The translations under genes were made by a program, and so were the position numbers. The notes under the pieces are model-generated. The model was given only the letters and a program-made list of their open reading frames with translations, searched no databases and was not told the DNA's origin. Positions 6,310-15,474 of a DNA stretch of 21,334 bases are shown piece after piece; the first letter of the stretch is position 1; every line of letters begins with the position of its first letter. Origin of the DNA: a virus; IMG/VR virus record IMGVR_UViG_3300038441_000732, positions 1 to 21,334 of that record; one strand, given 5' to 3'.

Positions 6310-8466
6310 ATGGGCAGCATGAAAGCACCCCCGTTCGAAATGAAGTACAACGCCCGGCAGCGGGAGGCGTTGGATATCCTCAACACCCGCATCGAAGACG
6401 CCAAGCGCCGGCTGGCTGCACCCCGCAAGATCATCGACTTTGAAACCCGTTGCGCTATCGACCTGAAACAGGTTGGGGCCTACAAGTACAGCCAGCACAA
6501 GAGCTGCGAAGTGTTGATGATGTCCTACAACTTGACCGGCAAGCCCGGTGACACAAAGTTGTGGGTCAAGGGCGACCGGCCACCGCAAGGCTTGTTCGCC
6601 ATGCTCAAGTCGGGCGCTATCCTCGGCGCGTTCAACTCCTACTTTGAGTTCTGCATCTGGAAACACGTTTGCGTCGCCCGAATGGGTTGGCCCGACATCG
6701 AGCTTGAGGACATCATTGACGTCGCCGACAAGTGTAAGGCCCTGGCGCTGCCTGCCAACTTGGCCGAGGCCGGCGAAGTGCTCAAGCTGGATATGCCTAA
6801 GGACACCGAAGGCAAGGCACTGATTAACCTGTTCTGCAAGCCCAAGAAAGACGGCACCTACAACGACGAACATAGCCACCCGGCAGAGTGGCAGCGGTTT
6901 TGCAACTACGCCATCCGCGACACCGACGCCGAACTGGAAATTGACTTGCTGCTGCCCGACCTGCTGCCAATCGAACAGCTGGTAGCGTGGCTCACTAACC
7001 GTATCAACTGGCGCGGTGTGTACGTGGACCAAGCCGCCATCCGGGGGGCTGACAAGCTGGCAGGCGCCGTCAAGGTGCAGTACAACGCCGAAGCGTCGAA
7101 GCTTAGCGGCGGCATGTTCCTTAAGTGTACGCAGCGCGCCAAGGTCAAGGAGTGGCTTAAGCTGCAAGGCATCGTCATGCCGAACATGCAGGGTAAGACC
7201 ATTACCAAATGGCTACGCAAGGATCTTAAGCCACACGTTCGCCGCATGTTGGAGCTGTACACCGTAGCCGGTTCGTCCTCGGTTGCCAAGTTCAGTTCCA
7301 TGCTGAACTACGTGTGTGATGATGGCCGGGTGCATGAACTGCTAAACTACCACAAGGCGCGTACCGGGCGCTGGGGCGGCAAGGGTATCCAGATTCAGAA
7401 CTTCCCCCGGCCCGTGCTGCCCAAGGGCACCGACTACGAAGAAGTGCTGCGCATGCTCAAGCGTGGCAGCGTGGCAGAGCTTGAGGCATACGCCCGCAAG
7501 CTTGAGGCCATGGACAAGAAACAACGTACCGCCAAGGGTAAGACAACATGGTGGACGTTCAACGTTATGCAAGTGCTCACGTCCAGTATCCGGTCAGTCA
7601 TTTGCGCCATGTTCGGCAACCACTTCAAAAGCGCCGACTACTCGGCCATTGAAGCGCGCTTCCTGGTGTGGGAGGCTGGTGACGAACGGGCCCTGCAACT
7701 GTTCCGTGACGGCGTTGACGTGTACCTTGACATGGCGGCAGCGATCTACGGCGTACCACTGCATACGCTTGACAAAGAGTCGGATGAACGACCGCTCGGT
7801 AAGGAAACCATTCTCGGCGCTGGGTATGGCATGGGCCACGAGAAATTCCAAACCCGCTGTGATGAAGTGGCGAACATCCAGATTGACATTGCCATGGCGA
7901 AGAAGTCGATCAACGCTTACCGTACCAAGTACGAAAGCGTTGCCGGCAAAAATGGCTTATGGAAACAGCTTGAGCGCGCCAGCGTTGAGGCCGTTCAACA
8001 CCCAGGCCGTGTTACAGAGTACCGAGGGTTCAAGTATCGCGTCACGAAATATGGCAAAATGCCGATTTTGGAATGCCGCTTCCCATCAGGGCGCAAGACC
8101 GGCTACCCCTACCCACGCGTGGTTGAGATTGATAAGTGGGGCAACGGCAACTTGCAGTATGAGCTGCGCTATCAAGGGTACGACAGCAAGACCCACAAAT
8201 GGGTTGAGCTGAGTACCTACGGCGGGAAGTTGGTGGAAAACAACACCCAGGGCGGCAGCCGTGACCTTATGGCGTTCGGTATGTTGCTGCTCGACTGCGT
8301 TGGGTACTTCCTCATCATGACCGTGCACGACGAAGCGGCCAGTGAGGACGAAGACGGGTTCGGGTCGTTGGAGGATTTTGAACTGCTGCTATGCACCCTC
8401 CCGCGTTGGGCGTGGGGGCTTCCGGTAACAAGCGAAGGCTGGCAAGGGCCGAGGTACAGAAAGTAA
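6310..8466 (+). CDS. Family A DNA polymerase with 3'-5' exonuclease domain
   Basis: The product has 718 residues. I chose the ATG at 6310 because GGAG (6300-6303) lies 6 nt upstream; an ATG at 6298 would overlap that site. The exonuclease domain shows motif I DFET (D43, E45), a motif II-like FNSYFE (N109, E113) and motif III Y200/D204 (YAIRD). The polymerase domain shows motif A DYSAIEAR (D443), motif B with K498 and GYG (505-507), and motif C VHDE (H673, D674, E675). The C-terminus (GWQGPRYRK) is typical of the phage subfamily that travels with DUF2800/DUF2815 genes. It lacks the N-terminal 5'-3' exonuclease of bacterial Pol I. This is the replicative polymerase. Its stop codon overlaps the start of the next gene (TAATG). 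Confidence 0.97.
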   Translation: MGSMKAPPFEMKYNARQREALDILNTRIEDAKRRLAAPRKIIDFETRCAIDLKQVGAYKYSQHKSCEVLMMSYNLTGKPGDTKLWVKGDRPPQGLFAMLKSGAILGAFNSYFEFCIWKHVCVARMGWPDIELEDIIDVADKCKALALPANLAEAGEVLKLDMPKDTEGKALINLFCKPKKDGTYNDEHSHPAEWQRFCNYAIRDTDAELEIDLLLPDLLPIEQLVAWLTNRINWRGVYVDQAAIRGADKLAGAVKVQYNAEASKLSGGMFLKCTQRAKVKEWLKLQGIVMPNMQGKTITKWLRKDLKPHVRRMLELYTVAGSSSVAKFSSMLNYVCDDGRVHELLNYHKARTGRWGGKGIQIQNFPRPVLPKGTDYEEVLRMLKRGSVAELEAYARKLEAMDKKQRTAKGKTTWWTFNVMQVLTSSIRSVICAMFGNHFKSADYSAIEARFLVWEAGDERALQLFRDGVDVYLDMAAAIYGVPLHTLDKESDERPLGKETILGAGYGMGHEKFQTRCDEVANIQIDIAMAKKSINAYRTKYESVAGKNGLWKQLERASVEAVQHPGRVTEYRGFKYRVTKYGKMPILECRFPSGRKTGYPYPRVVEIDKWGNGNLQYELRYQGYDSKTHKWVELSTYGGKLVENNTQGGSRDLMAFGMLLLDCVGYFLIMTVHDEAASEDEDGFGSLEDFELLLCTLPRWAWGLPVTSEGWQGPRYRK

Positions 8467-8774
8467 TGGCCAAGGGTAAAGTTGAAAAGGTAGCCGAAAA
8501 CCAGTTCGTCAAAGAAGCGTTCCGGCGCGGCTATTTGGCGCTAAAAATGGAAATTCCTGGCTGGCGCAATTGGCCCGACCGACAAGTACTGCTGGGCCAT
8601 GGCTATGTGTTCTTCATTGAGTTCAAGCGCGAAGGTGAAGAACCTAGGCCGGGGCAGGTTCACCGGCACAAGGAGTTGCGCGCTAAAGGCTACACCGTGT
8701 ATGTGTGTGATACTCTTGCCGACGCGCTTAAGGCGCTTGAAACTGAACTTGGAAAAATGGCGCTCATCATATGA
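8466..8774 (+). CDS. VRR-NUC domain nuclease
   Basis: The product has 102 residues, the usual size of stand-alone phage VRR-NUC proteins. The core is present: NWPDRQVLLGHG (metal-binding Asp), then FFIEFKREGEEP (the E-x-K of the PD-(D/E)XK fold), then a Gln in the following helix (RPGQVHRH) and the final strand GYTVYVCDT. Related domains cut branched or flap DNA, but the substrate of the phage versions is mostly unknown. It is wedged between polymerase and helicase: the start overlaps the polymerase stop and its end overlaps the helicase start (ATGA), so all three should be made together. I chose the ATG at 8466 for this coupling; an in-frame ATG at 8391 would lie inside the polymerase gene. 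Confidence 0.9.
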   Translation: MAKGKVEKVAENQFVKEAFRRGYLALKMEIPGWRNWPDRQVLLGHGYVFFIEFKREGEEPRPGQVHRHKELRAKGYTVYVCDTLADALKALETELGKMALII

Positions 8775-10286: not shown

Positions 10287-11375
10287 ATGTCCGAATTAAC
10301 TCTAACCGCCGCCTCTCATTTCCACCCGTTGACCAATTCGCTGTTTGAGTTGGTCAAATGCGCGTTCTGCAATGGCACCGCCGCTGCAAGCGTGAAGATC
10401 TTGGCTACTATGCCGAGCGGCGTGAAGATTTGGGGCGAACCGCAACTGCCCGCTCGCACGGAGCTTGCCGACGACCTGGAAACCGACTGCTGCACCACCT
10501 GCCGGGGGTTGGCGTACTACATCGAAAACGTCAAGTCCGAATGGGCCGTCATCCACCGCCAAACCGGCGCAGTTGCTACGCTCAAGAAGTCTGAGAAGGC
10601 CGCACGCATCGAGTGCGACAAACTCAACAACCCGCCGCCCGTAGACAGTGCTCCAGTGGCTGTAAATGACGCGGTGGAAAGCAACTTGACAACTGATCTT
10701 TCCACCACTAAACTCCCCGGCATGGTAGTTATTCGCCTCGCCGGCGACCTGCCAAACGGCCTGAAACGTGGGCACCACGTACAGCTGCCAATCGACAAAT
10801 TGACCGCACTCATCACTGAAACAGGAGCTACACCCATGGCCAAGCCAACCGACCGCAAGACCGCTAAAGACCTGATCCGTGCCCTCATCATCAAGAAGAA
10901 AACCGACGATGCGATCATCGCCGAAGTCCAGGCCGCGTTCCCTGAGTCCAGTGTCGACAAAAAGCACTGCACCAAGTACCGTCGCGAACTGCTGGTCGAG
11001 GGCCTGATCGGGGCCGAACTGGCAGCCGTGGGCAGCCCGGACCACCGCGAATGGGCAGCCGCCAACCCGGCGCTGGCCAAGAAAGGCCCGCACGCCGAGT
11101 ACCACAAAGCCGCCGAAGCGAAGGCCAAAGAAACCGCCAAGGCCAAACCGGCAGCAGCCGCAAAGCCAACGCCGGTAGCCAAAGCACCTGCAAAGGCCGC
11201 TGCCGCCAAAGCACCTGCAAAATCTTCCACTGGCTCGGCCAAAGCCGTTGCCGCAAAGAAGGCCGGCAAGGGCCCGAAGACCACCGCGCCCAAGGCTACT
11301 ACCAAAGCCAAACCAGCGCCGAAGGCTAAAGCTTCGGTCGGCAAGACCGCTCCAGCCGACGCTCTTGAAATCTAA
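10287..11375 (+). CDS. Zinc-ribbon protein with Lys/Ala-rich histone H1-like tail
   Basis: The product has 362 residues and starts behind a good GGAG site. Residues 25-28 (CAFC) and 69-72 (CTTC) form a C-x2-C pair of pairs, probably a zinc ribbon. Residues 184-260 form a separate charged helical region (DRKTAKDLIRALIIKKKTDD). From about residue 265 the chain is low-complexity Ala/Lys/Pro (repeats of the AKAPAKAAA kind), like histone H1 tails and Pseudomonas AlgP, which bind DNA without sequence specificity. A strong internal start lies at 10836 (Met184), so a 179-residue C-terminal form may also be made. The role is unknown; DNA compaction or nucleoid interaction is a guess. As first gene after the strongest promoter it may be abundant. 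Confidence 0.8.
   Translation: MSELTLTAASHFHPLTNSLFELVKCAFCNGTAAASVKILATMPSGVKIWGEPQLPARTELADDLETDCCTTCRGLAYYIENVKSEWAVIHRQTGAVATLKKSEKAARIECDKLNNPPPVDSAPVAVNDAVESNLTTDLSTTKLPGMVVIRLAGDLPNGLKRGHHVQLPIDKLTALITETGATPMAKPTDRKTAKDLIRALIIKKKTDDAIIAEVQAAFPESSVDKKHCTKYRRELLVEGLIGAELAAVGSPDHREWAAANPALAKKGPHAEYHKAAEAKAKETAKAKPAAAAKPTPVAKAPAKAAAAKAPAKSSTGSAKAVAAKKAGKGPKTTAPKATTKAKPAPKAKASVGKTAPADALEI
10823..10838 (+). promoter_or_regulatory. Internal ribosome binding site and in-frame ATG
   Basis: AGGAG (10823-10827) lies 8 nt before an in-frame ATG (10836-10838) followed by GCC AAG CC, inside the gene at 10287. Initiation here would give a separate 179-residue basic protein without the zinc ribbon. 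The site is as good as those used at true gene starts in this window. Confidence 0.45.
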
Positions 11376-11625: not shown

Positions 11626-11898
11626 ATGAAAGTTATCTGCACCAATTCCGAAGAAACTCCAGCCGTGGCCTTGCACACTGTTAAGCCCGGTCGCGTAGTC
11701 CGTTACGACGACCTGCAAGGCAATCCTGAATACTACGAAGTCGGCAAGGTCAGCGCCAAAGAGCAGCCGTTTATCCAGGTTCCGCTGGACAAATGCCTGC
11801 TTATGAACCTGACCACCGGCCGCATAGTGCTCAAACACCATTTGCTAAAGGTCGTGCCGCAAAGCTGCACCGCCGAAGCCTATTCAACCCCAAACTGA
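11626..11898 (+). CDS. Hypothetical protein (90 aa)
   Basis: The product has 90 residues behind a TGGAA site. It reads as a small beta-rich domain (VKPGRVVRYDDLQGNPEYYEV, then FIQVPLDKCLLMNL), resembling the KOW/SH3-like barrels of small phage proteins, but I do not recognise a family. Only 15 bases separate it from the pyrophosphohydrolase-kinase gene, so it is probably part of the same transcript and could be an accessory to the nucleotide cassette by position alone. Confidence 0.75.
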   Translation: MKVICTNSEETPAVALHTVKPGRVVRYDDLQGNPEYYEVGKVSAKEQPFIQVPLDKCLLMNLTTGRIVLKHHLLKVVPQSCTAEAYSTPN

Positions 11899-11913: not shown

Positions 11914-13254
11914 ATGACTCAGTACAAGCTGTACGACACCACCCCGTACAAAAGCATGACGCTGTTGCAGATGCTGAAACAATTCCATGACAAGTTCGGC
12001 ACCCCATACGACGGCCTGCCGCGTGAGTTGGGCACTGCAGAATCGGCGTTTCGCATCGTCTGCCATCAGGAAGAAGCCCAAGAATACCTGGACGCGGTTC
12101 AGGACTATGATATCGTCGGCTCCCTGGACGCCTTGGCCGATGAGTTGTATTTCCTGACCGGCACTATCCATCGCCAAGGGCTGGGTGAATACATCACTTC
12201 CGAGCCCGTAGCGCTGGGCTACCGTGATGTCAAGCCGCATATGCTGGCGGCTGACGCCAACAACATGCGCAAAGCCCGCCATGCCGCTGTGCTGCACAGC
12301 TACGAAGAACGCGTGCGCCGGGGCGACCTGATCGGGCAGGGTATGGCACTCAACGAGGCCATTCGCGCTTTCCGTGCCACCGCTCAAATGCACTGCTTCG
12401 ACATTGACGAAGCGCTGCGCCGCGTTCACGCTGCCAACATGTGCAAGGACGTTGACCCGGCTAAGCAGCGCCGTACTGCTGAGCTGAAAGCGAAAGGCCA
12501 CGACGCCGGGCACCTGCTGGAAATCACGAAGCCGGAAGGCTGGTTGCCGCCGTACCTTGGCGACCTGTGCGGAAAGGGGCCGTACGAAGAAGAGCCGGTG
12601 TACGACACCACCCAACAACCTATCAACGCCAACCATGCCTCACTGCAACCCGGCAAGCCGCTCGTTAACGGCGGTCAGTCGCACCTTTGCGGCCTGATTA
12701 CCATTGACGGCCCCGACGCCAGCGGCAAGAGCACCCTGGCTGCGCGCATTGCCGAGTTGTTCAACGGGCAGGTCATTCACTTGACCTGGAGCAAACAACT
12801 GGAAGCGGTGATGCACGACTACCGCTTCCACGCTATTAACTACGCGGCGGCGCTGGCGCACAACTGCGTAGTGGTGTTGGAACGCCCGTGGTTGTCGCAC
12901 CCGGTCTACGCCGAAGTGTACCGCAACGGTAAGTACGACGTCGAACGCGTAGGCATCTGGAAAGACCACACCGAAAGCGAGGCACTGCTCAACATCATCG
13001 CCTTGCCCGGCAACGAAGATCAGTGGTTCGCCGGCTATCAAAACATGTGCGCAACCCGCGTCGAGTTGCACGGCCCGAACGAAGCCAAAGCCCGTGCGGT
13101 GTATGAGGGCTTCCGTGACGCTTTCACTGGTGAGGCCGGCCAGGAACGCCAACCGCAAAACGTCGAAGTTTTCGACATGCAACAATGGCCGCAAGCCCAA
13201 CTGGACGACTACATCCAGCGCTACGTCCTACCAGTTCTCAAGATCAAGGAGTAA
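11914..13254 (+). CDS. Fused MazG-like NTP pyrophosphohydrolase and P-loop dNMP kinase
   Basis: The product has 446 residues in two parts. Residues 20-90 look like an all-alpha NTP pyrophosphohydrolase: FHDKFGT, then HQEEAQEY (E53, E54, E57), then LDALADELYFLTGT (D72, D76), the metal-binding E-E-x2-E...D pattern. The following HAANMCK...KPEGWLPPYL is the typical tail of phage MazG-like proteins. From about residue 258 a P-loop kinase begins: TIDGPDASGKSTLA (K272), like thymidylate and phage deoxynucleoside monophosphate kinases, with an ERPWLSHPVY segment resembling their DR[x]-type nucleotide-binding region. Such fusions could remove an unwanted dNTP and phosphorylate a replacement dNMP. With the TS-fold enzyme and deaminase downstream, a role in changing the nucleotide pool is likely. 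The actual substrates cannot be read from the sequence. Confidence 0.85.
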   Translation: MTQYKLYDTTPYKSMTLLQMLKQFHDKFGTPYDGLPRELGTAESAFRIVCHQEEAQEYLDAVQDYDIVGSLDALADELYFLTGTIHRQGLGEYITSEPVALGYRDVKPHMLAADANNMRKARHAAVLHSYEERVRRGDLIGQGMALNEAIRAFRATAQMHCFDIDEALRRVHAANMCKDVDPAKQRRTAELKAKGHDAGHLLEITKPEGWLPPYLGDLCGKGPYEEEPVYDTTQQPINANHASLQPGKPLVNGGQSHLCGLITIDGPDASGKSTLAARIAELFNGQVIHLTWSKQLEAVMHDYRFHAINYAAALAHNCVVVLERPWLSHPVYAEVYRNGKYDVERVGIWKDHTESEALLNIIALPGNEDQWFAGYQNMCATRVELHGPNEAKARAVYEGFRDAFTGEAGQERQPQNVEVFDMQQWPQAQLDDYIQRYVLPVLKIKE

Positions 13255-13257
13255 GTC

Positions 13258-14217
13258 ATGACTCAAGCAACCGAGCAACAAACCACTGGGCTGTTTCAGA
13301 ACGGCATGGAATTTCTGTTTCCGCGCACCGAAGACGGCCCGTCACTCTACTCCATCATGGAAGGGGCGTGGCTCTTCGCCGCGCTGGTCAAGGGCATCCG
13401 AGAAAAGGTGTGGGAGTGTGACCCGGCTACGCCAAACCCGGTCGCCGCTGCATGGGCGCGTGCAGGGCTGTTGGAAATCTCCCCTGCCGTGTTTGACGGC
13501 GTACCTGACCATGAAGACATGCGTGTCCACTTGACTGGGGCTGGCAAGCGCGTGGTTGACTGCCAAGCGCTGCTGGAGTACGAGTTCAGCATGATGCAGC
13601 AACAGCTGGACGGCAATTTCGATACGGACCCGGCCAAGTACAAGGCCCTGCGCGGCGGGTTGGACAACTACGCGGTTGCGTTCCTGCCTGATATGCACAA
13701 GTGGATTGCGGACCAAGCGCCGACCACGACCAAAACCCCGCGCTTCTTCGACTACTGTGGTGGCAGCGGCGGGTATCTGGCAAGCTTCCTGGCTACGCAC
13801 AAGGGCGCGCAAGGGCTGCTGTTCGACCGCGAACCGGGCGTTACCAAAACCTCGGCGGCAGTGCTGAGTCGCATGGGCATCAAAGCGGGTGACGCGTTCG
13901 GCGACGACCTCTTCTTTGCCAACCACGCCGGGGCGTATGACGTGGTGTTGTTGAGCGAAATCCTGCACTGCAAAGGCCCGGCTGAACGCCAGTTCCTGTT
14001 GCAGCGCGCAAAGTCCCTGCTGCGCCCGAGCGGCGTAGTGCTGGTCGTCGAGCAGTACCCGAACCTACGTTTGGAGTGGCGCATGCACGACATGACCGAC
14101 GCCGGGCAGTGCATCAGCGAACAAATGGTTGCAGCCGAAGCGCAGGACGCTGGTTTCATGGCTGTTTCTGGTATACATAGCCTTAGCCACTACGGCATTC
14201 GTTTGGAGCAAATCTGA
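13258..14217 (+). CDS. SAM-dependent O-methyltransferase-like protein
   Basis: The product has 319 residues and starts 3 bases after the kinase stop codon, with AGGAG (13247-13251) upstream. The C-terminal half is a class I SAM methyltransferase close in pattern to the small-molecule O-methyltransferase family (Methyltransf_2): motif I FFDYCGGSGGY (GGSG 168-171), an acidic residue after the second strand (LLFDRE, D190), a conserved region YDVVLLSEILH with H237 where these enzymes carry the catalytic His, and LLRPSGVVLVVEQ. The family's DxD after that His is absent. The N-terminal half has a winged-helix-like segment (WARAGLLE, then HLTGAGKRVVD), as in the dimerisation domain of such enzymes. 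It is not an ordinary DNA methylase: no NPPY or PC motif. Lying between a dNMP kinase and a TS-fold enzyme, it may methylate a nucleotide or its side group. Confidence 0.8.
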   Translation: MTQATEQQTTGLFQNGMEFLFPRTEDGPSLYSIMEGAWLFAALVKGIREKVWECDPATPNPVAAAWARAGLLEISPAVFDGVPDHEDMRVHLTGAGKRVVDCQALLEYEFSMMQQQLDGNFDTDPAKYKALRGGLDNYAVAFLPDMHKWIADQAPTTTKTPRFFDYCGGSGGYLASFLATHKGAQGLLFDREPGVTKTSAAVLSRMGIKAGDAFGDDLFFANHAGAYDVVLLSEILHCKGPAERQFLLQRAKSLLRPSGVVLVVEQYPNLRLEWRMHDMTDAGQCISEQMVAAEAQDAGFMAVSGIHSLSHYGIRLEQI

Positions 14218-14218
14218 T

Positions 14219-15022
14219 ATGAACCTGACACCTATTTCCCCGTACTGGGAAGACGTGTATCACGCCAACCTGCTGCAAGCGTTCTTGGCCCCGGATATGG
14301 AACTGATTAACCACACGTTCCGCCTCCCAGGCCACCGCGCAATGAGCGACCGCTGCATCCAAAACCCGGTGCGCGGCTTCCGTACTGAATTCAGCCACGT
14401 CATGGCGGACTGGATTCTGGACGGCCAAGTGCAAGTGTCCGAGGCCATGTTGGCGCTCAACCCCAATGCCGCCAAGTTCGCCACCACGCTGGACGATGAA
14501 AAGTACGGCTATCATGTCACGGCCTACGGCCCGCGCATCAAGTCGCAGCTGGAGTTCGTAGTGGCCGAGCTGCAACGCAACCCGGATAGCCGCCGCGCCT
14601 GCATCATGATGCTCGCCGCGTCTGACCAGTTCGTTGCCGAAGCTATGGCGGCGGGTGACACGAAGTGCGAGTACCTCTGCACCTACGCCTTTAACTTCCG
14701 GCTGCGCAAAGGCTCGCTGGACCTCAACGTTTCCATGCGCTCCAACAACTACACGACGACCGTTTGTCAGGACGTGTACGTGTTTGCCCGACTGCAGGAA
14801 CAAGTCGCGCAGCAGTTGGGCGTTCCGGTGGGCGAGTACTACCACCACACCGCATCAGGGCACGTCTTCATTGGCGAAGAGTTTCGCGCCGCCGAGATCC
14901 TCAGCGCCTATTGCAAGGCGTATGTCGAAACCTACGGCGCAGCAGCCTGGAATGCTGAATGGGGTGCGGCCTGGAAAGCCTTCGTAGCCCGCTGCCTCGA
15001 ACTGGGAATCGAGGTAGCGTGA
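14219..15022 (+). CDS. Thymidylate-synthase-fold enzyme, probable dCMP hydroxymethylase or methylase
   Basis: The product has 267 residues. I chose the ATG at 14219, one base after the methyltransferase stop, with GGAG at 14205-14208. The TS fold is clear: YGPRIKSQLEFVVAEL, NPDSRRACIM (R125, R126 for phosphate), LCTYAFNF with the probable catalytic C154, MRSNN (R174), and SGHVF (H215). Compared with E. coli TS, the spacings C146-R166, R166-N177 and N177-H207 (20, 11 and 30) are reproduced exactly as C154-R174-D185-H215. D185 thus stands where TS has the base-recognising Asn177; Asp there marks T4 dCMP hydroxymethylase and points to cytosine. N177 replaces TS Asp169, and F217 replaces Tyr209. 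So dCMP is the likely substrate. Whether it adds hydroxymethyl or methyl cannot be told. Confidence 0.85.
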   Translation: MNLTPISPYWEDVYHANLLQAFLAPDMELINHTFRLPGHRAMSDRCIQNPVRGFRTEFSHVMADWILDGQVQVSEAMLALNPNAAKFATTLDDEKYGYHVTAYGPRIKSQLEFVVAELQRNPDSRRACIMMLAASDQFVAEAMAAGDTKCEYLCTYAFNFRLRKGSLDLNVSMRSNNYTTTVCQDVYVFARLQEQVAQQLGVPVGEYYHHTASGHVFIGEEFRAAEILSAYCKAYVETYGAAAWNAEWGAAWKAFVARCLELGIEVA

Positions 15023-15462
15023 TGAAACTTGACCTGTCAGAAGCGCTTGAGCACGCTAACAGGTTCGCAGAGGCCACGGGGGGTTGCCCCCGTGCCGCTG
15101 TTGCGACCTACCTTTATGACGAAGAGGGCAACCGCATTGCACGGGCTTCCAACGCCCGGTTCGACGGCAAGTGTGACTGCAACGACGAGGCAGACACGCT
15201 TACAACTGCAAGTTCCACCTGCTGCGCAGTGCATAGCGAAGTGGCGGCGCTTCTTGAGGCCGCACGACTGGGGCAGTTCAACCGTCTGGATACGGCAGTA
15301 GTAACGCGCCCCCCGTGCTGCAAATGCCTGCCGGCGTTGCTGTCAAGCCCGGTGAACACCATCGTCACGAGTGATGAATGGCCCGACCGGGACGGCACCG
15401 AAGCGGTTTGGCGGCGGTTCGGCCGATTGTGGTATACGTTGAGCAACAAAAAAGCCCCTTAA
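15022..15462 (+). CDS. Cytidine/deoxycytidylate deaminase-like protein
   Basis: The product has 146 residues and starts on the stop of the TS-fold gene (TGATG). The zinc-deaminase motifs are present: CAVHSEVAAL (H71 zinc ligand, E73 catalytic; HSE instead of the usual HAE) and PPCCKC (C99 and C102 as the P-C-x2-C zinc ligands). The segment before the first motif is cysteine-rich (CDCNDEAD, then STCC), which is unusual. The length is near that of cytidine or dCMP deaminases. In a cassette with a TS-fold enzyme it could make dUMP from dCMP, or act on a modified or unwanted cytosine nucleotide. It is last in the operon, directly before the terminator. Confidence 0.8.
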   Translation: MKLDLSEALEHANRFAEATGGCPRAAVATYLYDEEGNRIARASNARFDGKCDCNDEADTLTTASSTCCAVHSEVAALLEAARLGQFNRLDTAVVTRPPCCKCLPALLSSPVNTIVTSDEWPDRDGTEAVWRRFGRLWYTLSNKKAP

Positions 15463-15474
15463 AAGGGGCTTTTT
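15448..15474. terminator. Bidirectional intrinsic terminator between converging operons
   Basis: AGCCCCTT...AAGGGGCT forms a GC-rich stem (15453-15459 with 15464-15470), flanked by an A-run before (15448-15453) and a T-run after (15470-15474). It works on both strands: it stops the nucleotide cassette from the left (the stem begins inside the last codons of the deaminase gene) and the tail operon from the right. Confidence 0.92.

What the first reader, a model, noticed from the sequence alone, without database searches (positions are those of the whole stretch)
11914..15462. Four-gene cassette that looks built to make a hypermodified cytosine nucleotide
In one tight operon lie a pyrophosphohydrolase-dNMP kinase fusion, a small-molecule-type O-methyltransferase, a TS-fold enzyme with the Asp of dCMP hydroxymethylases, and a cytidine/dCMP-deaminase-like protein, with gaps of 3, 1 and -1 bases. 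Known phages make modified cytosine from dCMP by this route (T4 hydroxymethylation; XP12 methylation at the nucleotide level), each with a matching kinase and a dCTP-removing enzyme. An O-methyltransferase in the set is not something I know from those systems and would allow a product such as an O-methylated hydroxymethylcytosine. The chemistry is hypothesis.
Basis: partly seen in the sequence, partly recalled or inferred. Interest (0 to 1): 0.85.

Follow-up and report, generated by a model that had tools for sequence, protein, structure and literature searches.

The report
Phage cassette for methoxy-capped DNA cytosine
This uncultured phage carries a tight four-gene kit that probably swaps its DNA cytosine for a 5-methoxy version, putting a methyl cap on the cytosine oxygen where related phages put a sugar, which would be a DNA base not yet reported in nature.

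Summary
The cassette is real. MazG–kinase, O-methyltransferase (OMT), thymidylate-synthase-fold enzyme and dCMP-deaminase-like genes lie at the stated places with gaps of 3, 1 and −1. Order and tight spacing recur in three relatives (39–80% aa identity), under purifying selection. A fourth, unrelated phage (L027) has OMT, TS fused to MazG, and deaminase in a row. The dCMP-type reading holds: Thr147 and Asp177.

The hydroxymethyl part probably does not. The TS-fold enzyme lacks the Glu58, Asp169 and Gly173 of hydroxymethylases such as T4 gp42. It carries the Met/Phe58–Glu143–Asn169–Val/Thr173 pattern of 5-hydroxy-dCMP synthases (RB69/Mosigvirus; Thanatos), and its best PDB match is an RB69-like enzyme. 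In 24 IMG/VR loci with this TS type, 19 have a sugar-pathway gene beside it, 4 have the OMT instead, none both. The OMT resembles phenol-type O-methyltransferases with the catalytic His.

Best reading: dCTP → dCMP → 5-hydroxy-dCMP → 5-methoxy-dCMP → triphosphate → 5-methoxycytosine DNA. Chemistry is inferred; no product has been measured. A cultured phage with a parallel hydroxymethyl-type cassette (AXL3) has DNA resistant to all 35 G/C-site enzymes tried. Not known in the papers searched; a new variant of a known kind.

The parts
11914..13254 (+). MazG-type nucleotide pyrophosphohydrolase (about aa 21-90) fused to a P-loop nucleotide kinase (GPDASGKS at about aa 265); proposed dCTP to dCMP and modified dCMP to diphosphate
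   Evidence: Pfam PRA-PH 2.5e-6, phrog_671 2e-19, phrog_761 thymidylate kinase 6e-9; motifs kept in 4 phages; homologous to AXL3 gp30 and gp29
13258..14217 (+). COMT/Methyltransf_2-type small-molecule O-methyltransferase with SEILHCKG motif, catalytic His237 and Glu265; proposed capping of the cytosine 5-hydroxyl
   Evidence: Pfam; PDB sequence hits AlpH, CalO6, 3mcz; AF2 pLDDT 64 and Foldseek to MfnG, 3mcz, CalO1, COMT at E about 1e-13; motif invariant in 5 phages
14219..15022 (+). Thymidylate-synthase-fold dCMP-modifying enzyme, 5-hydroxy-dCMP-synthase type: C146, T147, D177, H207 kept; M58, E143, N169, T173 (E. coli numbering)
   Evidence: Residue table and tree; best PDB 9iqu/9iqc 7e-21, about 99% identical to RB69p048 over the aligned part
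15022..15462 (+). dCMP/cytidine deaminase-like protein (HSE, PCCKC); proposed dCMP to dUMP, draining unmodified dC nucleotides
   Evidence: Pfam dCMP_cyt_deam 1.8e-8; homologous to AXL3 gp27 dCMP deaminase; Zn motifs
15456..15468 (+). Short intrinsic-terminator-like hairpin at the deaminase stop codon, between the convergent operons
   Evidence: Pattern scan only; number of hits not above shuffles
11626..11898 (+). Small conserved gene just upstream; its homologue in Pseudomonas phage KPP23 is followed by late genes instead of the cassette, marking the insertion point
   Evidence: tblastn to KPP23 8262-8486 at 1e-6 with no cassette after it

Best explanation
The cassette makes a 5-methoxy-deoxycytidine nucleotide for incorporation into phage DNA in place of dC. 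Steps: the MazG domain hydrolyses dCTP to dCMP; the TS-fold enzyme hydroxylates C5 of dCMP to 5-hydroxy-dCMP; the O-methyltransferase uses SAM to cap the acidic, phenol-like 5-OH as 5-OMe; the fused kinase and host NDK raise it to the triphosphate; the deaminase turns remaining dCMP into dUMP. Shown: gene content, order, conservation, family membership, residue pattern, and exchange of the sugar gene for the OMT. Inferred: every catalytic step, that methylation happens on the mononucleotide, and the final base.
For: Thr147 and Asp177, near the two TS positions that best separate modified-cytosine phages (147 and 177; PMC8670742), are present. Residues 58/143/169/173 match RB69 and Thanatos and differ from T4 gp42, AXL3 gp28, PW916, ctUtU524 and ATCCB. 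RB69-type enzymes are 5-hydroxy-dCMP synthases (PMC13390438); the Thanatos sugar is bound directly to cytosine through oxygen (PMC12838424). Closest PDB match is an RB69-like enzyme, 7e-21, against 7e-4 for T4 gp42. In 24 loci with this TS type, 19 have the sugar-pathway gene next to it, 4 the OMT, none both (Fisher p 5e-4 uncorrected for kinship). The OMT-TS-MazG-deaminase set recurs in the unrelated L027 phage. OMT fold and catalytic His/Glu match phenol O-methyltransferases. No sugar genes found in window or relatives.
Against: No biochemical data. The tree branch joining the window TS to the RB69 group (98/95) falls to 29/46 when the signature columns are removed, so the assignment leans on those residues and on pairwise scores. 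Window TS is only about 26% identical to RB69's and has Met rather than Phe at 58. The OMT substrate is inferred from fold and neighbours; its AF2 model is of middling quality (pLDDT 64). The primary paper on 5-hydroxy-dCMP synthase was not held; I rely on its citation in PMC13390438.
Confidence: 0.58

Rival explanations
1. One reading: the TS-fold enzyme is a dCMP hydroxymethylase and the OMT makes 5-methoxymethyl-dC, parallel to the carbamoylated hydroxymethyl-dC of MetaGPA phages.
For: Thr147/Asp177 are also in T4-type hydroxymethylases; PRA-PH, TS, dCMP deaminase plus a carbamoyltransferase co-occur in phage contigs with modified cytosine (PMC8670742).
Against: Glu58, Asp169 and Gly173, present in every hydroxymethylase-type and TS sequence compared, are replaced; grouping with AXL3-type or T4+ATCCB enzymes is rejected (AU p 0.002 and 0.009). 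COMT-like enzymes mostly methylate aromatic hydroxyls, not primary alcohols (own knowledge).
Confidence: 0.17
2. The TS-fold enzyme modifies dCMP, but the OMT acts on something else or later: on 5-hydroxy-dC in finished DNA, on a further unknown group, or on a host metabolite.
For: OMT sequence is divergent (41% to the third relative); N-terminal part modelled with low confidence.
Against: OMT is always adjacent to, and closely spaced with, this TS type in two unrelated lineages and takes the place of the sugar gene; its fold is of small-molecule OMTs.
Confidence: 0.13
3. Thymine-side product: the deaminase converts the modified dCMP to a dUMP analogue, giving for example 5-methoxy-dU in place of T.
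For: A deaminase lies in the same operon.
Against: dCMP deaminases accompany ordinary modified-cytosine cassettes (MetaGPA; Thanatos TH1_119; AXL3); nothing marks this one as specific for modified substrate.
Confidence: 0.06
4. Ordinary nucleotide supply: deaminase, TS and kinase make dTMP/dTDP, and the methyltransferase is unrelated.
For: This is how the analogous AXL3 genes were annotated by their authors (PMC7504290).
Against: Asp177/Thr147 mark dCMP rather than dUMP enzymes, and AXL3 DNA itself is refractory to 35 enzymes with G/C in their sites.
Confidence: 0.04

Closest known systems
Mosigvirus (RB69, NP) and Thanatos 5-hydroxy-dCMP synthase plus glycosylation pathway
   Same: TS-fold enzyme with Phe/Met58, Glu143, Asn169, Val/Thr173, Asp177; modification starts at the mononucleotide; a nucleotide kinase nearby
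   Different: They cap the 5-oxygen with arabinose or another pentose through sugar genes; here those are absent and an O-methyltransferase sits in that place
MetaGPA 5-hydroxymethylcytosine carbamoyltransferase phages (PMC8670742)
   Same: PRA-PH + TS(Asp177) + dCMP deaminase + tailoring transferase active on the nucleotide (5hmdCTP)
   Different: Tailoring enzyme is a carbamoyltransferase on a hydroxymethyl group; here an O-methyltransferase and a 5-hydroxy-type TS
Stenotrophomonas phage AXL3 cassette (gp27-gp31)
   Same: Homologous deaminase, kinase and MazG proteins, a TS with Thr147/Asp177, and a SAM methyltransferase nearby; DNA resists 35 of 37 restriction enzymes
   Different: TS is of hydroxymethylase type (E58, D169, G173); gp31 is not detectably homologous to the OMT
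T4 gp42 dCMP hydroxymethylase pathway
   Same: dCTP removal, TS-fold dCMP enzyme, kinase, dCMP deaminase
   Different: Residues 58, 169 and 173 differ; T4 caps with glucose after replication
Small-molecule O-methyltransferases (MfnG tyrosine OMT, CalO1, COMT, ASMT)
   Same: Fold, SAM motif, catalytic His (and Glu)
   Different: About 12-21% identity; not known to act on nucleotides

Membership tests
TS-fold dCMP-modifying enzymes | Catalytic Cys146, Arg166/Ser167, His207, and Asp at 177 with non-His at 147 | tested here: met
   Alignment of 21 sequences
5-hydroxy-dCMP synthase (RB69/Thanatos type) | No Glu at 58; Asn169; Glu143; bulky residue at 173 (pattern derived here from RB69 and Thanatos) | tested here: met
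   M58, N169, E143, T173 in all four window-clade phages; F/N/E/V in L027
5-hydroxy-dCMP synthase (RB69/Thanatos type) | Common descent with RB69/Thanatos enzymes apart from hydroxymethylases | tested here: inconclusive
   98/95 with all columns, AU rejects the alternatives, but 29/46 without the signature columns
5-hydroxy-dCMP synthase (RB69/Thanatos type) | Makes 5-hydroxy-dCMP | not testable with these tools
   Needs an enzyme assay
dCMP hydroxymethylase (T4 gp42 type) | Glu58/60, Asp169 and Gly173 conserved as in TS and T4 gp42 | tested here: not met
   Met, Asn, Thr at these positions
Thymidylate synthase (dTMP) | Asn177 and His147 | tested here: not met
   Asp177, Thr147
Methyltransf_2-type O-methyltransferase | N-terminal helical/winged region plus SAM-binding Rossmann domain, GG.GG motif, catalytic His | tested here: met
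   Pfam 1.2e-5, above the curated cut-off; Foldseek; His237 invariant in 5 phages; N-terminal part modelled with low confidence
5-hydroxycytosine glycosylation system (ara-hC type) | Sugar-nucleotide/glycosyltransferase genes beside the TS | tested here: not met
   No match to TH1_063-, TH1_060- or RB69p050-type profiles in window or relatives

The most novel reading that the evidence does not exclude
At least two unrelated phage lineages replace DNA cytosine with 5-methoxycytosine, made on the mononucleotide by a 5-hydroxy-dCMP synthase and a COMT-like O-methyltransferase that takes the role played by sugars elsewhere: a new natural DNA base, capped by O-methylation of its ring oxygen.
Probability: 0.5. 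Interest if true: 0.85.

Novelty: new variant of a known kind. Interest (0 to 1): 0.74.

Why it matters
5-Hydroxycytosine is mutagenic and easily oxidised (own knowledge), so phages that make it must cap it; the described caps are sugars. A one-carbon cap from SAM would be the smallest known, would give a DNA base not reported so far (no paper found on 5-methoxycytosine as a natural DNA base, or on 5-methoxymethylcytosine), and would test which defence enzymes read bulk and which read base chemistry. It also gives a four-residue rule for telling 5-hydroxy- from 5-hydroxymethyl-type TS enzymes in phage genomes, where both are now annotated 'thymidylate synthase' or 'dCMP hydroxymethylase'.

Tried and rejected
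No homologues of the OMT (or of L027's OMT) or of the deaminase in 50,697 phage records by tblastn; no near DNA match. No OMT relative in 84,980 prokaryote genomes by pattern scan. AF2 of the TS-fold protein from four sequences was too poor to use (pLDDT 47). XP12 was not in the collection under the accession I tried, so the 5-methyl-dCMP type could not be compared. The paper on 5-hydroxy-dCMP synthase biosynthesis (bioRxiv 10.1101/2025.06.16.659550) is not held. Papers for PDB 9iqu/9iqc/9ir2 were not found. Considered and rejected: chance ORFs (conservation), ordinary dTMP supply (Asp177), AXL3 gp31 as a homologue of the OMT (no phmmer match).
Full report
Observation. Family searches give MazG/PRA-PH plus a P-loop kinase, an O-methyltransferase domain, a TS domain and a dCMP/cytidine deaminase domain. 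The window is the whole of a virus record that is itself a fragment. The rest of it is a PolA-type replication module (primase, Gp2.5-like SSB, exonuclease, DNA polymerase, VRR-type nuclease, helicase) facing contractile-tail genes.

Conservation. IMG/VR holds three relatives of about 48 kb. All keep the four genes in order; in the third the contig ends inside the deaminase. Identities run from 77–80% through 59–71% to 39–65%, spacing stays between −4 and +4 bases, and dN lies well below dS for all four genes. In the nearest cultured phages (Pseudomonas KPP23/RSP; terminase 58%, polymerase 37%) the same replication genes and the small gene before the cassette are present, but the cassette is not (KPP23). 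So it is an added unit, and the host is probably a Pseudomonas-like bacterium (inference).

What the TS-fold enzyme is. It has the catalytic Cys and, at E. coli positions 147 and 177, Thr and Asp. MetaGPA (PMC8670742) found these two positions to be the ones that best separate TS proteins of phages with modified cytosine from ordinary ones, with Asp at 177 in the modified group. Its best solved relatives are 9iqu/9iqc (7e-21), whose aligned part is about 99% identical to RB69p048; T4 gp42 is far weaker (7e-4). RB69 and its kin do not make hydroxymethylcytosine: their TS homologue is a 5-hydroxy-dCMP synthase and the sugar hangs directly on the C5 oxygen (PMC13390438); the Thanatos pentose is likewise bound directly to cytosine (PMC12838424). 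In a table of 21 sequences, residues 58, 143, 169 and 173 split cleanly: Met/Phe, Glu, Asn, Val/Thr in RB69, Thanatos, other N169-type sequences, L027 and the window clade; Glu, Asp or Leu, Asp, Gly in E. coli TS, T4, AXL3, PW916, ctUtU524 and ATCCB. ATCCB's TS lies beside a T4-type beta-glucosyltransferase, fitting a hydroxymethyl product. The tree puts the window with the RB69 side (98/95), and the alternatives are rejected (AU 0.002, 0.009), but support is weak (29/46) when the signature columns are left out. The residue pattern is therefore the main evidence.

What the OMT is. Sequence and fold place it with small-molecule O-methyltransferases: AlpH, CalO6, 3mcz by sequence; MfnG (tyrosine OMT), 3mcz, CalO1, COMT, ASMT by fold (model pLDDT 64). 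The catalytic His237, in an invariant SEILHCK stretch, and Glu265 are kept in all five phages. Such enzymes mostly methylate acidic aromatic hydroxyls (own knowledge), which suits the 5-hydroxyl of 5-hydroxycytosine better than the alcohol of hydroxymethylcytosine. This is an inference.

Independent recurrence. A scan for the OMT motif found one further locus, L027, in an unrelated 35 kb contig. There a shorter OMT overlaps a TS fused to a MazG domain, followed by a dCMP deaminase. That TS also has the 5-hydroxy pattern. A scan for this TS type gave 24 loci: 19 carry a TH1_063-type sugar-pathway gene beside it, 4 the OMT (three relatives and L027), one at a contig edge neither, none both (Fisher p 5e-4, not corrected for kinship). 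TH1_063 itself was shown to be a UDP-xylose pyrophosphorylase. Profiles of the RB69/Thanatos sugar genes find nothing in the window or the relatives' 48 kb contigs, and Pfam shows no glycosyltransferase among ten otherwise unexplained G001 proteins.

Mechanism. dCTP → dCMP (MazG domain); dCMP → 5-hydroxy-dCMP (TS-fold); → 5-methoxy-dCMP (OMT, SAM); → di- and triphosphate (fused kinase, host NDK); DNA polymerase then inserts 5-methoxy-dC. The deaminase drains dCMP to dUMP, as in T4-like phages. Gene content and residue patterns are shown; each reaction is inferred. Capping before polymerisation is inferred from the OMT's small-molecule fold and its place between kinase and TS genes.

Support from cultured phages. 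Stenotrophomonas phage AXL3 has homologous MazG, kinase and deaminase genes, a TS with Thr147/Asp177 and a different SAM methyltransferase. Its DNA was cut by only 2 of 37 enzymes, both with A/T-only sites (PMC7504290). This supports the general reading of such cassettes as cytosine (or guanine) modifiers, though its TS is of the hydroxymethyl type.

Novelty. No paper was found on 5-methoxycytosine as a natural DNA base or on 5-methoxymethylcytosine, and no held paper joined an O-methyltransferase to the phage hydroxymethylase literature. The library lacks most subscription papers and preprints, so this is not proof. I rate it a new variant of a known kind: TS-fold dCMP modification plus tailoring, with a new cap.

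Noticed in passing
L012 (Stenotrophomonas phage AXL3, MT536174.2): AXL3 gp28, published as an ordinary thymidylate synthase, has Thr147/Asp177/Glu58/Asp169, so probably makes 5-hydroxymethyl-dCMP; with gp31 methyltransferase nearby this could explain its restriction-resistant DNA (PMC7504290).
   Followed up: partly
L035 (Lactobacillus phage ATCCB, MK504445.1): TS of dCMP hydroxymethylase type directly followed by a T4-type beta-glucosyltransferase and a UDP-galactopyranose mutase: a likely glycosylated hydroxymethylcytosine phage outside the T4 group.
   Followed up: partly
   Followed up: no
L031 (Rhizobium phage RHph_N34) and L007 (Agrobacterium phage Atu_ph04): 5-hydroxy-type TS; in RHph_N34 it lies next to a dNMP kinase, an NTP pyrophosphohydrolase and a Pfam-less 340-aa protein (EVC06_136) that may be a new capping enzyme.
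   Followed up: no
window 10287-11375: 362-aa protein with a long Lys/Ala/Pro-rich, histone-like C-terminal tail, no PHROG match, conserved in all three relatives.
   Followed up: no
L018:14687-15241 (relative G001): T4 DenV-like pyrimidine-dimer DNA glycosylase (Pyr_excise, 8e-11).
   Followed up: no
L027:6512-7537: TS-fold domain fused to a C-terminal MazG domain in one protein, a fusion that supports dCTP removal being tied to this TS type.
   Followed up: yes
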